DNA of 64,000 nt from Chionoecetes opilio. Its lineage: Eukaryota > Arthropoda > Malacostraca > Decapoda > Majidae. Of the stretch, positions 11,201-62,000 are shown one piece after another (positions within the stretch are counted from its first letter, which is position 1; the number at the start of each line of letters is the position of its first letter). Below the pieces are notes generated by a model. It searched no databases and had not been told where the DNA came from. It worked only from the letters and a program-made list of their open reading frames with translations. The translations under genes and the position numbers were made by a program. The stretch covers positions 305,001 to 369,000 of the forward strand of contig JACEEZ010020968.1 in NCBI GenBank assembly GCA_016584305.1, in the 5' to 3' direction.

Positions 11201-14200
11201 GAGAGAGAGAGAGAGAGATTGGGGATGTCTGTTATTGGTCTTTTCATTCATGGATTTTAGAATGGTTAAGGTAATAGTGGTATGTTGCTGGTATAGTGGT
11301 CAGTACATTGAGAGATGAGAGAGAGAGAGGTAATGAGAGGAGAGAGAGAGGAGAGAGGAGAGAGAGAGAGAGAGAGAGAGAGAGAGAGAGAGAGAGAGAG
11401 AGAGAGAGAGAGATGATAGTGATGCATGTTATTGGTCTTTTCACTCGTGGTTTCTAGAATGATTACAGTGGTGGTGATGGTGATGGTGGGGGTGGTAGTG
11501 GTAGTGGTAGTTGTAGTTGTTAAAGGGACTAGATTCAGTCTATGCGGGTGACTTGCATGTTCTTTGTTGATATAATAGGAGTGGACAGTTGACACCCCTC
11601 AAGTACCCTTATATTAAGTTCACTCACCCTTCACTTTTACTACTACTACTACCACTACCACCACTACTGCTGCTGTTACTACTACTTCTACTAGTACTAG
11701 GCCTACGACTACTAACTACTACCACAACTATTTATATCACTGCTACCACTATTACTACTACTACTACTACTACTACTACAACCACCACCACCACCCTCCT
11801 TCTGCCCCTTCTTTCTTCACAAAGTTTCTTCAAATGGGTCATTCATTAACTATTACTACCACCTTCTCCTACCTCCTTTTGCTACCCTCTCCTCCTCTTC
11901 TTCCATAAACACCCTCACTATCACCCTTCTTCTGCCACTTCTTCAGATTTCGCCGAGTTGGTCAAATACTACCACCTCTTTCTTCTCCTCATCCTCTTCC
12001 TCTCCTCCTCCTCCATACACACCCTCACCCTTCTTCTTCGCCTCCTTCAGGTTTCCTCACGTGGGTGAACTGCACTAACGTGAAGTGGGCCACCAAGGTG
12101 CAGGACGTGTTCACGGCGGCCAAGGTGCTCGCCCTCATCATCATCATCATCGCCGGGGTATCGCACCTCGCCATGGGACACGTGGACAACTACCAGAAGC
12201 CTTTCGATAACACCAAATTGGACTTCGCATTAATCGCCACCGCCTTCTACCAGGGACTCTTCTCTTTTGCTGGCTGGTGAGGGTGTGTGCGTATGTGTGG
12301 TTTTTTTACGTCACAAAGGACTGGCCAATGGCTAAAAAGAAGTAACATGAAGCCCGCTTAGTTGTCAGTCCCAATAAAGGAGACAGTAAGAGAATATAAA
12401 AAGGGGGATGGGCCAATTTAGTTCGGGAGGCGTCTTGTTGCTCTCGTTCGGGAGGTTGTGTGTGTGTGTGTGTGTGTGTGTGTGTGTGCAGTGCCGGATT
12501 TGGGATGTGCCTGCATGTGGCCCGTTTTGGTGGGGGGCCATCACAAGCATTAAATTAGCATAGTGCTACATGGAAATACATTTTTAACTCTCGCACGCCG
12601 CAACGATATGGTCGCCCGCACGATACGACTTGCTCCCGACGACCCACGATACTCAGAAATTGATGTCATTGCCATCTCCAAATCCAAAATCAAGTTATGC
12701 TTATCCATTACCAGACTGATTTTTCATTACCAAATTAACCTTGATTTGGTAACGAAAAATATCAAATGTCAAGTTGCCCAACATTTGATGGTGCCCTTAG
12801 CTACTGGTGGCCCTTAGCTACTGGTGGCCCTTAGCTACTGGTGGCCCTTAGCTACTGGTGGCCCTTAGCTACTGGTGGCCCTTAGCTACTGGTGACCCTT
12901 AGCTACTGGTGGCCCTTAGCTACTGGTGGCCCTTAGCTACTGGTGACCCTTAGCTACTGGTGACCCTTAGCTACTGGTGGCCCTTAGCTACTGGTGACCC
13001 TTAGCTACCGGTGACCCTTAGCTACCGGTGACCCTTAGCTACTGGTGGCCCTTAGCTACTGGTGGCCCTTAGCTACTGGTGGCCCTTAGCTACTGGTGGA
13101 TGACCTAGGCCCCTCGCCCCTCCCCCCCCCTTCCTTGAGTCCGGTCTTGTGTGTGTGTGTGTGTGTGTGTGTGTGTTCTTACTCATAACTGTATCCTTAT
13201 CTAAGTGCTCTTACCCCTAATAGTGTTCGTATCTAATTGTGTTCTGACATTCGTTCTTATTTAATTGTGGTAATATATCTCATTCTGCTTACCTAATTGT
13301 TCTTGCCTACTCCTTATGTACTGCAATTCCTACCACTGCCTTACTACTGTTTATCAATCTAATGATCCTCTTATTTCTTTTTGCAGGAATTACTTAAACT
13401 TCGTGGTGGAGGAACTCAAGACCCCATACAAGTGAGAGAGAGAGAGAGAGAGAGAGAGAGAGAGAGAGAGAGAGAGAGAGAGAGAGAGAGAGAGAGAGAG
13501 AGAGAGAGAGAGAGAGAGAGATTAGTGACGCATTCATGTATTGTTTGTTGGATTAGTATTTGGTTTTATGGACGAGAGAGAGAGAGAGGGGGAGAAAAAA
13601 AAGAGAGAGAGTGAGAAACTCCTCCCCGGAAGAGCTGTAGTGAGGGTTGGGAACGCATCCCTCTTCACTCTCCCTCCCATCTCCCCCCCTCTCTCTCTCT
13701 GATGGATGTATGTATGTATGTTTGCCACCACTGTATCTCCCGGGTATGTATAGTCATGACTCATGGTATACAAGACTTGGTAGTAAGTAACATTGACTCA
13801 ACATGTTCAACTCAAAGCAAACCAGAAGGAGAGAGAGAGAGATAGATAGAGATAGATAGAGATAGATAGATAGATAGAGAGATAGATAGAGAGAGATGAG
13901 ATAGAGAGAGATAGAGAGAGAGAGAGAGTGAGAGAGACGGGGCTCGAACCATTGGCCAGGCGGAAGCAATGTTAGGCTTAGGGCGGGTCCACAGGCTTGT
14001 GTTAAGGCTTGTAGCTCCAACATGCGCTGGCAACATGTAAGCAACCATTACCAAACAAGCTGGGAACGTGTGGTGAACTGTTGTGTCCAGATGTTTGAGC
14101 ACACGTGTGGACGCGCTCTAGCTCCTTGCAGCATTAACTCCTTCACGCCCAGATCTTTCCTTGGCTATATAAAATTGTCTGTTGTTAGCCATAAAATTAC

Positions 14201-59000: not shown

Positions 59001-62000
59001 GTCTGCTACACACATGACAATTGACCCTTTTTTCTTTTTTCTTCACCAGGTGTACGCGGGCATCAAGCGTCAGTACAGTTCGTCGATGAATGCGGTGTGC
59101 AGCATGCCCGTGTCCACCCCCACGCCCACCCACATCAAGAAGTGGTGGCGCTACCATCACAAGGACCGCGTGGTGCTCAGGCTGCCCGTCCCACGCGTGT
59201 CCGAGAGGAACGGCACCATCTGCTGTCACAGGTAGAGGAACACGAGTCACTGTACCCCTCCTTCACCTGTCCCCTCCACATTGCCGGGTCTTTGCAGGTT
59301 CCTTGAGGTTACATAAGAACATAAGAAAATAAGAAATAAGGAAGCTACAAGAGGCCGCGAGACCTACACAAGGCAGTTCCTCTATTACTGATACATGTGT
59401 GGCTTTTAACCCCTTCACGCCCAGATTTTTCCTTTGCTATTAAAAATTGTATGTTTTTGAGCCATAAAATTACAAAAAGTAACTGAATATACCAAATTAG
59501 TTAGTCGACAAGGATACTAAACAGGTATCTATGTTTCTATAGCTATAAAATGTTGCATATATATATTGAGGTTGTGTGTTGATTCGACCAGGTTCCAGTT
59601 GTGATTGTGTGGGCTTTGTGTTGTAGTGTTGTTTGCATGTGTCACTCCCTTACTGGTTCTTGAGATGTAGTTGTGACCTTATTGGCGTGAGTGATGTAAT
59701 GTTTAGTTGATATGAAGAATAGAAAGTGGGCTTATTTTCCCCTTAAATGATTAAATAACCAGTTTGTTTATGAGAATATTGAAACCAATTCTATAGCTTC
59801 AGTGAGTACCAGGATTCCTTATCAAAACAGTTAAAAGTAGTAGGATAATTTGTATGATTTTTATTTAATTTTTTATTATTTTAGAATTACGTAGGATTAT
59901 TTCCCCCCTGAGTAACGTTGGCCTTGTGTTGCAGGGTGGTGGTGGTGAAGCTGGAGGAGGGCGCCTCGCAGGACACCCTCCCTGACCCCAGCAAGGTGCC
60001 CCTCAGCTCCTACGGGGAAGTGCACAGCTCACCCTCCTCCACCGGGGCCTACGTGGCGGAGGCATTCTCGGGGTGAGACATCATGCCTGTGGCCTTTGAG
60101 TTTTCCTTTGTACAGCAGCATTTTGAAGTAATTTCGCCTCTTCTTATATACCTACTTTTTACACACAATTATTTATTAAACAACTCATTCCTGACACTTC
60201 ATAGATATTAGTCATCGTTCATGTAGTACCTCACACCACCAGGCTGTCACACGTATCACAAGGTCTTTTTATAATCCTGGATATTATCACCCATGGCGAA
60301 TTCATCAAAACAATTTACTTATACTATCGCATACAAGCACTATCAATACAAGAAGTTGTACGATACACCAAAGAACATGGGAACAGACCAGCAGAAAGAC
60401 ACTTCAGACCACTGCCTACCGGAGAAAATTGGTAGATTTTACTACCGCCTACCAGTAGAAAATCAGTTTTTTTTTTATTCGAAATTTCTTTCCAAAATCA
60501 GGGTGCGTCTTCCAAGATGCAGCGTCTTATAAGCCGTAAAATATGATAATCCTTAACAGACGTAGAGTAACCAAATGTTCCGTCCCTGCAGGTGGCACAT
60601 CAAGGACAAGTATCTGTTGCTGGGTGACGACAAGGTAGGCGGGCAACTGGTCGTGGGGGTGTTCCTCGTGCCTGGGCAGCCCCACGGGAGACCCCACCGC
60701 CGCCCACAGCACGGACCCCCGCCCCACCACGGCGCCCCTGACCCGAGGCAACCGCAGGGACCTCCTCTCCCTGCAGAAGGATCCTCCCCTGGTTGACGGG
60801 CTGCTGTCCAGTGAGGCCAATTACACCGGCTTTGTCATCATGTCGGGTGAGTGGTTATGGTAGTTCTTTTTTTTTTCTTATTCTTTTCTTTGAAGCTTAT
60901 AGCACCTGTAGGCTACTAAGTTTTTATTTCTTTTTTGTGTTAAAGCCTATAGCACCTGTAGGCTTTTATGTTTTTTTTAAAGTAGTTAGTAGTAGGTATG
61001 TGTAGGTATATTATGTTCGTTATTTCTTTTTATGCATTTTTGTGGATTATTAAATGTCTATCTATCAGTATATCTATCTATGGAGGCATGGAAGAAAGGA
61101 TTTTTTTTTGTTATATGTATATGTGTATTGTTTCTAAGCATTTTATTATTATTATTACGGGGTGGATCTGCTCTTTGTCTCTTTTGCTCACTGGAAATTT
61201 TGCATTTTTTTTGGAAATTTGGAACTTCTTATCCTCTTATCCTAATCACCCTGTACCTATCCCTACACAGTATCCACCAAGGTAGGCTCTTTTCTATCTT
61301 CCTTCCTATCCTTCCTATCTATCTTCTAATCCTGCTCATCCTTCTACCCCTACACTGTGCCCACCAAGGAAGGCAAACATCCCTAATCCTATCCTAACAT
61401 CTCTATCCCTCTATCTATATATCCTTCCTTTCCTCCTGTCATATCCCTCTACCATCCTTCCTATCTCCTATTCAACCCTAATCACCCTCTATTCTACCCA
61501 TCACAGTGCCCACCAAGGAAGGCAAGCTGCTCACCACCTACACCGACTACTTCCCCATCATCCAGCCCAAGGAGGAGGTCACCCCCTACGGCGACCCCCC
61601 CTCCAGCATCTCGGAGCTGCAGATCATCTACGTGGCGGCGGGACTCTTCACCTTCCTGCTCCTCCTCACCTTCGCCCTCTGCACCCTCCTCTGCTTCTAC
61701 CGGCGAAGGAACAAGCATCTGGAGGAGGAGGAGGTGGCCGAGAGTCTGTCGGGATCCCTCGGGTAAAGCTCTCGGGGGTTTCTTATGCCTCCACTCATGG
61801 CAGTATTTATTTAATTCTTTTAGTACATGCACTTCCATATGCTTTTTATTTTTGAGGCATTGAACAAAGCGAGGTTTGCTTTGCCCCAATCAGAAATTAT
61901 AGAAAGATCAGAAGTTAGGCGCTCGGTGGCATCTCTCCGTGAATTGTTGAAAGTTCCTGTTGAGTTGGACGTCTAATAAACGACGTTGAAAAATTCAGGG

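What the first reader, a model, noticed from the sequence alone, without database searches (positions are those of the whole stretch)
11821..61530. Tandem duplications repeatedly copy splice junctions in all three genes
At six or more junctions the neighbouring intron holds decayed copies of the junction itself: acceptor plus first exon bases, or last exon bases plus donor. In three further cases a minisatellite ends in the real splice site. One such case is ordinary; about nine in one window, across three unrelated genes and both strands, suggests either a duplication process favouring junctions or survival of duplications that leave one working site. It resembles models of intron growth and gain by tandem duplication of AG|GT-containing DNA.
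Basis: partly seen in the sequence, partly recalled or inferred. Interest (0 to 1): 0.82.

Follow-up and report, generated by a model that had tools for sequence, protein, structure and literature searches.

The report
Ordinary tandem duplications crossing splice junctions
In a large animal genome full of small local DNA duplications, some duplications happen to cross exon-intron borders and leave a spare, mostly decaying copy of the border in the intron; in the genes sampled this is no more frequent at the borders than elsewhere in the introns, so it looks like an ordinary background process and not a mechanism aimed at splice sites.

Summary
The copies are real. Of 52 testable internal junctions in three gene models, six match nearby sequence of their own intron across the junction: five low-copy cases (acceptors 12051, 52080, 59050, 61507; donor 56184) and one minisatellite donor (47774). 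Two more minisatellites end at acceptors (10746, 35252) without exon bases. The surprise mostly disappears against a control: the same test at intronic points is positive in 547 of 2707 cases (20%) in the window; in symporter-family genes elsewhere it is 5 of 91 junctions against 932 of 6213 (15%). Pooled: 7.7% against 16.6%; low-copy matches alone, 7.0% against 8.6%. Against this reading, g3 alone has more low-copy junction cases than its introns predict (5 of 22 against 9.6%), in the gene that prompted the finding. The copies look dead: weaker splice sites in 6 of 7 (one equal), no codon-position bias (4/6/5), stops after use in the five examined. Most likely: neutral intron growth by direct tandem duplication, with the exon-proximal site still working. 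Junction-spanning duplication is already known (potato RdRp; human repeats at exon-intron borders). Neither intron gain nor use of a spare site is shown.

The parts
11825..11850 (+). oldest decayed copy of the g1 exon 3 acceptor region (copy A; the alignment starts at 11717, partly low-complexity)
   Evidence: 65% identity with gaps over 136 columns; acceptor score 7.2 against 12.3 for the real site, leave-one-out
11854..11962 (+). decayed copy B of the g1 exon 3 acceptor region (copied AG before 11947), nearly head-to-tail with the real one
   Evidence: 70% (86% ungapped) identity; acceptor score 8.4 against 12.3
12051..12276 (+). g1 exon 3 (SLC7/LAT-type transporter) with the real acceptor at 12051
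   Evidence: frame-consistent join; one search identifies the gene from exon 1
10595..10745 (+). 30-bp minisatellite (to 10715) followed by a last partial unit that runs to the g1 exon 2 acceptor (10746); no exon bases copied
35253..35976 (-). 32-bp minisatellite; its last unit ends at the predicted g2 acceptor 35252; 19 upstream sites carry the same CCTTACAG. That 35252 is a used acceptor is not certain
   Evidence: the ten decoy scores printed lie between 13.6 and 14.9, predicted site 13.7 (that site is in the training set)
47635..47773 (+). g3 exon 3; donor at 47774
47778..49440 (+). 24-bp minisatellite starting 4 bp after the first donor base of g3 intron 3; weaker GT in its units
   Evidence: commonest array GT score 2.6 (20 of 40 sites) against 7.9 for the real donor
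51820..51931 (+). intronic copy of the g3 exon 6 acceptor (copied AG before 51902), 178 bp upstream, with 30 bp of copied exon
   Evidence: score 6.4 against 8.0
52080..52253 (+). g3 exon 6 with the real acceptor
56143..56207 (+). real donor region of g3 exon 7 (donor GT at 56184)
56261..56325 (+). intronic copy of the g3 exon 7 donor region (copied GT at 56302), 118 bp downstream, 92% identical, donor score unchanged
58749..58900 (+). intronic copy of the g3 exon 9 acceptor (copied AG before 58871), nearly head-to-tail with the real one, with 30 bp of copied exon
   Evidence: score 6.3 against 11.0
59050..59231 (+). g3 exon 9 with the real acceptor
61225..61287 (+). second, more decayed copy of the g3 exon 11 acceptor (copied AG before 61271)
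   Evidence: score 4.1 against 6.5
61287..61376 (+). first copy of the g3 exon 11 acceptor; AG lost (ACTG before 61358), while its 19 copied exon bases are identical to the exon
   Evidence: (score 2.8 against 6.5)
61507..61762 (+). g3 exon 11 (predicted membrane-spanning stretch) with the real acceptor

Best explanation
The introns of this genome accumulate direct tandem duplications (units from under 20 to over 200 bp) at a high rate and, over the genes sampled, with no sign of aiming at splice sites. Some duplications have one breakpoint inside an exon and so copy the acceptor plus the first exon bases, or the last exon bases plus the donor. After the event the exon-proximal site still gives the normal transcript, so the intron has simply grown by one unit; the spare junction is intronic and decays. 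Shown here: the copies, their direct orientation, their general abundance, no pooled enrichment at junctions, weaker splice signals in 6 of 7 copies, no codon-position bias. Inferred: that the exon-proximal site is the one used, that tolerance comes from exon definition, and that the spare copies are neutral. Duplication by replication slippage or unequal repair is assumed, not shown.
For: Junctions 11 of 143 (7.7%) against intronic tests 1479 of 8920 (16.6%); low-copy only 7.0% against 8.6%; without g2 8.7% against 17.2% and 7.9% against 8.7%. Control with targets from other introns: 1 of 1113 (window) and 8 of 3028 (symporter loci). Direct against inverted matches: 341 against 21 of 1459 tests (g1 and g3 introns, first 3 kb each) and 692 against 79 of 4995 (symporter loci). 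Copy and real stretch lie 4 and 9 bp apart at 12051 and 59050, and the two spare copies before 61507 adjoin. Leave-one-out splice scores lower in 6 of 7 copies, equal in 1. Substitutions in the copied exon parts of three cases: 4, 6 and 5 at codon positions 1, 2 and 3. A stop follows if 11947, 51902, 58871, 61271 or 56302 is used (the other two copies were not examined). Other genes of the same genome show the same thing, e.g. donors in L021 and L035. In human data, alternative sites of near-equal strength beside long introns favour the exon-proximal site (PMC9225289, passages read); all six introns concerned here are 544 bp or longer.
Against: In g3 alone, low-copy junction matches (5 of 22, one of them the 47774 minisatellite) exceed the intronic rate (138 of 1434), interval +0.3 to +25.4 points with only 7 clusters; in g1 and g3 together 16.7% against 9.3%, -1.9 to +16.5 points; in the whole window 11.5% against 8.7%, -4.4 to +11.0 points. 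No RNA data, so use of the spare sites, donor 56302 above all (equal score), cannot be excluded. Low-copy junction duplications are not clearly depleted, so purifying selection against them is not demonstrated. One spare copy (61358) keeps all 19 copied exon bases. Control junctions were called automatically from one protein family, plus nine of g3 placed by hand (0 positive).
Confidence: 0.8

Rival explanations
1. A mutational process targets splice junctions (for example breaks at exon-intron borders during transcription), so junctions are duplicated more often than other intronic DNA.
For: g3 alone: low-copy junction matches 5 of 22 against 138 of 1434, +0.3 to +25.4 points. Three of the five low-copy cases have similar offsets (149, 178, 179 bp).
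Against: No pooled excess: -14.6 to -3.7 points for all matches and -5.1 to +2.2 for low-copy ones; without g2 -14.2 to -3.0 and -4.7 to +3.4. Acceptors 0 of 36 in the symporter set. The intronic rate does not rise towards the junction (14.1% of tests within the first 200 bp, 14.4-19.7% beyond). 0 of 9 junctions of g3 at and beyond its last window exon. g3 was singled out because it holds the cases.
Confidence: 0.07
2. The spare junctions are functional: alternative splice sites or alternative exons kept by selection.
For: Five of six copied acceptors still end in AG, and donor 56302 scores the same as the real one.
Against: Weaker scores in 6 of 7 copies, no third-position bias in the copied exon parts of three cases, stops after use in the five copies examined; the copied exon parts in the window are 15-41 bp fragments, not exons.
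Confidence: 0.07
3. [quoted passage not shown]
For: Same kind of unit: 3' part of an intron plus 5' part of the next exon (PMC4974935, passages read).
Against: In each low-copy case the copy lies within a single intron whose flanking exons join in frame in the model, and no extra exon or intron is needed.
Confidence: 0.03
4. Assembly or gene-model artefact: duplicated reads, or misplaced junctions.
For: The window has apparent frame breaks inside exons of g1 and g3, and four g2 joins are not frame-consistent.
Against: The copies differ from the real junctions by 8-35% with gaps counted, which assembly duplication would not give; the six positive junctions are in g1 and g3, where joins are frame-consistent and sites canonical.
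Confidence: 0.03

Closest known systems
Junction-spanning tandem duplication in the potato RdRp gene (PMC4974935; passages read)
   Same: Direct duplication of the 3' end of an intron with the 5' end of the next exon.
   Different: There the duplication made a new intron; here the spare copy lies inside the old intron of the model and no new intron is evident.
Internal tandem repeats at exon-intron boundaries of human segmental-duplication genes (PMC2812944; passages read)
   Same: Repeats placed on splice junctions; 27 intron modifications reported.
   Different: Those are expanded repeats, mainly minisatellites, with transcript evidence; here five of the eight cases are two- or three-copy duplications and there are no transcript data.
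[quoted passage not shown] Hellsten 2011 as cited there and in PMC3443670; passages read)
   Same: Tandem duplication supplies a second set of splice signals.
   Different: The model duplicates an exonic segment; here an existing junction is duplicated and no intron gain is shown.
Internal gene duplication (Gao and Lynch 2009; not read, known from citations)
   Same: Frequent duplication within genes.
   Different: As cited, it concerns internal gene duplications, including ones that contain entire introns; here 15-41 exon bases are copied in the window cases.

Membership tests
Tandem duplication spanning a splice junction | Direct repeat containing bases from both sides of the junction | tested here: met
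   Five low-copy cases
Tandem duplication spanning a splice junction | Copies adjacent head-to-tail | tested here: inconclusive
   4 and 9 bp apart for 12051 and 59050, adjoining for the two spare copies before 61507; 53-66 bp of unaligned sequence between copies at 52080, 56184 and between the first spare copy and the real one at 61507
Junction-favouring duplication process | Junctions duplicated more often than intronic points | tested here: not met
   Pooled 11 of 143 against 1479 of 8920; exception: low-copy matches in g3 alone, 5 of 22 against 138 of 1434, post hoc
[quoted passage not shown]
   No new intron needed in the models; no relative of this genome is held
[quoted passage not shown]
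   No RNA data
Tandem alternative exons | Open, selected exon copy with its own acceptor and donor | tested here: not met
   Only 15-41 bp of exon copied, stops follow in the five copies examined, no codon-position bias in three cases

The most novel reading that the evidence does not exclude
Junction-crossing tandem duplications are close to neutral in this genome (low-copy rate 7.0% at junctions against 8.6% in introns), which means that the spliceosome tolerates near-complete spare acceptors and donors 100-200 bp into the intron. If so, the genome holds on the order of one duplicated junction in fourteen, in graded states of decay: a natural series for testing exon-definition proximity rules, and a standing reservoir for new alternative sites or introns. 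Donor pair 56184/56302, with identical scores, may still compete in RNA; and g3, with low-copy cases at 5 of 22 window junctions, could be a true local hotspot.
Probability: 0.35. Interest if true: 0.5.

Novelty: new member of a known kind. Interest (0 to 1): 0.28.

Why it matters
It removes most of a lead: the cluster of junction copies is about what a tandem-duplication-rich intron background predicts. The useful remainder is quantitative: duplications that cross a junction appear to survive at a rate not far below those inside introns, which bears on how introns lengthen and on where spare splice sites for new isoforms or introns come from.

Tried and rejected
Rejected: pooled enrichment at junctions; functional spare exons; low-complexity hits at donors after 13431 and 52253, absent after masking. 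A first run on the symporter loci skipped 44 of 91 junctions and skipped 41 of 91, mainly because my exon map overlapped the junctions; one search corrected this and tests 91 of 91. The control gave no window cases (0 of 0) and was repeated. Searches ended in script errors; one search had printed its counts, and one search was repeated.

Withdrawn: I counted the copied exon share of the unit as below one half in 7 of 7 events (sign test p = 0.016). The L021 figure was cut off by my search window; a wider alignment gives about 99 exon bases at an offset of about 154, above one half. With 6 of 7 the test says nothing, so I do not claim removal of units with more exon.

Rows dropped: of 94 PF00209 matches I used 86; four of the others lay outside the stretches I fetched and four had stops inside. 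Of the 86, those with in-frame stops gave no junction calls. Junctions needed a splice-score threshold, so weak real junctions are missing. Two of 54 window junctions, both in g2, were not testable. A wider sample was planned from PF00063 and PF00225 but did not complete.

Identity of g2 beyond 'WD40 protein' was not settled; four of its joins (exons 1-2, 3-4, 5-6, 6-7) are not frame-consistent, so exons are probably missing or some boundaries are off. Literature searches gave nothing used here that another search had not given; passages of PMC2809761 were read and not used.
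Full report
What the window is. The window lies in a 1.94-Gb genome of 20,818 contigs and is very rich in micro- and minisatellites (one search counts 153 TRF rows, overlapping ones included, not all printed). It looks like a decapod crustacean, but that is my impression and was not tested. Three gene models were built from open frames, canonical splice sites and frame: g1 on +, an SLC7/LAT-type transporter; g2 on -, a WD40 protein of unsettled identity; g3 on +, an Ig/FN3 receptor that continues outside the window into a tyrosine-phosphatase-like region. 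Joins in g1 and g3 are frame-consistent apart from breaks inside g1 exon 7 and g3 exons 6 and 10; four g2 joins are not.

The observation. Five are low-copy duplications that carry intron and exon bases: acceptors 12051, 52080, 59050 and 61507 and donor 56184. Full alignments are: identities between 65% and 92% with gaps counted; offsets from the real junction to the nearest copy are 104-179 bp (and its coordinates), and 15-41 exon bases are copied. One minisatellite (47778-49440) begins at donor 47774. Two others (to 10715, and 35253-35976) end at an acceptor but hold no exon bases. Two further hits (donors after 13431 and 52253) are low-complexity.

Is it more than the background? I masked microsatellites, took 50 bp either side of an anchor, and asked for a match (score at least 50, at least 12 bp on both sides of the anchor) within 500 bp on the intron side. 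Anchors every 20 bp of the same introns were tested one side at a time, which makes them comparable with a junction, whose copy can lie only on the intron side. In the window 6 of 52 junctions are positive against 547 of 2707 intronic tests. In 33 loci with called junctions of the sodium:neurotransmitter symporter family elsewhere in the genome it is 5 of 91 against 932 of 6213; of these five, L021 and L035 are convincing duplications, L026 is a minisatellite or a misplaced donor call, and L016 and L022 are short or of simple composition. Pooled: 11 of 143 (7.7%) against 1479 of 8920 (16.6%), cluster-bootstrap difference -14.6 to -3.7 points. Counting only places with at most two matching copies in range: 10 of 143 (7.0%) against 8.6%, difference -5.1 to +2.2 points. 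The 47774 minisatellite counts as low-copy in that tally because at most two of its copies match within range. Nine junctions of g3 at and beyond its last window exon give 0. The window is not significantly richer than the symporter genes (6 of 52 against 5 of 91, Fisher p = 0.21).

By gene, and the result against this reading. g1: 1 of 14 junctions against 147 of 772 intronic tests; g2: 0 of 16 against 31 of 501; g3: 5 of 22 against 369 of 1434. Leaving out g2 changes little in the pooled sample (8.7% against 17.2%; low-copy 7.9% against 8.7%, -4.7 to +3.4 points). But for low-copy matches g3 alone shows an excess (22.7% against 9.6%, +0.3 to +25.4 points, 7 clusters), and g1 with g3 a nominal one (16.7% against 9.3%, -1.9 to +16.5 points). 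g3 is the gene in which most of the cases were noticed, so this is post hoc; it keeps a local hotspot open without supporting a general process.

Are the matches real duplications? Targets taken from other introns give 1 of 1113 and 8 of 3028. Inverted matches are about 9 to 16 times rarer than direct ones: 21 against 341 of 1459 tests in g1 and g3, and 79 against 692 of 4995 in the symporter loci. In three of the five low-copy cases two copies adjoin or lie within 9 bp of each other. So the introns sampled are full of direct tandem duplications.

What the spare junctions are. Splice-site scores computed without the real site in question are lower in 6 of 7 copies and equal in one, donor 56302. 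Five of six copied acceptors still end in AG; one (61358) has lost it while its 19 copied exon bases are unchanged. Substitutions between real and copied exon parts in three cases (52080, 59050, 56184) fall 4, 6 and 5 on codon positions 1, 2 and 3, as expected for unselected DNA. Using 11947, 51902, 58871, 61271 or 56302 leads to a stop.

How it most likely works. A tandem duplication crossing an acceptor gives intron - AG - exon start - intron end - AG - exon. Splicing to the second AG restores the old transcript and merely lengthens the intron; for donors the mirror image holds. Reed and Maniatis, as cited in PMC9225289, found the intron-proximal site favoured, but in human data sites of near-equal strength beside introns above about 250 nt favour the exon-proximal site (PMC9225289; passages read). 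All six introns with a positive junction here are 544 bp or longer. If the same holds in this animal, the harmless choice is the default one and such duplications drift and decay. This last step is inference; no RNA was available.

What is known. A duplication of this layout created an intron in potato (PMC4974935); internal tandem repeats at exon-intron boundaries alter human genes (PMC2812944); [quoted passage not shown] Passages, not whole texts, were read. The present cases belong with these as duplications, but no intron gain is shown. I therefore rate the finding as ordinary in kind. What remains of interest is that crossing a junction seems to cost a duplication so little.

Limits. The control genes are one family with automatically called junctions; a wider sample was not obtained because the genome search did not complete. 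g2's model is incomplete. No related genome was held, so ages and conservation could not be tested.

Noticed in passing
window 35253-35976 (-): A 32-bp minisatellite places 19 CCTTACAG acceptor-like sites upstream of a predicted g2 acceptor; the ten scores printed are like or above that of the predicted site. If that acceptor is used, it is a natural test of acceptor choice.
   Followed up: partly
window 16705-16852 (+), 52080-52253 (+), 60592-60846 (+): Apparent frame breaks inside exons of g1 (perhaps two) and g3 (the last could also hide an intron); possibly assembly errors or alleles.
   Followed up: no
window 1915-2219 (+): A 22-bp minisatellite runs almost up to the start codon of g1 at 2221.
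   Followed up: no
window 40168-40377 (+): Isolated open frame with a hydrophobic, membrane-anchor-like C-terminal stretch between g2 and g3, ending in a stop; perhaps a first exon or a relic of another gene.
   Followed up: no
window 27532-27642 and 62300-62483: The same short AT-rich repeat (both TRF consensus units contain GCTAGGAAATTTCG) occurs in g2 and g3 introns; probably a dispersed element.
   Followed up: no
window 8531-8806 (-) and 38457-38699 (+): Two open frames share a long peptide (ISTSMI.GKLEGAIWRVCVILCLHLC), suggesting a dispersed repeat family.
   Followed up: no
L026, near locus position 1593: A stretch at a called symporter donor recurs at least six times within 500 bp (the count stops at six), the best copy 100% identical over 41 bp; a young minisatellite on a junction, or a misplaced donor call.
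   Followed up: no
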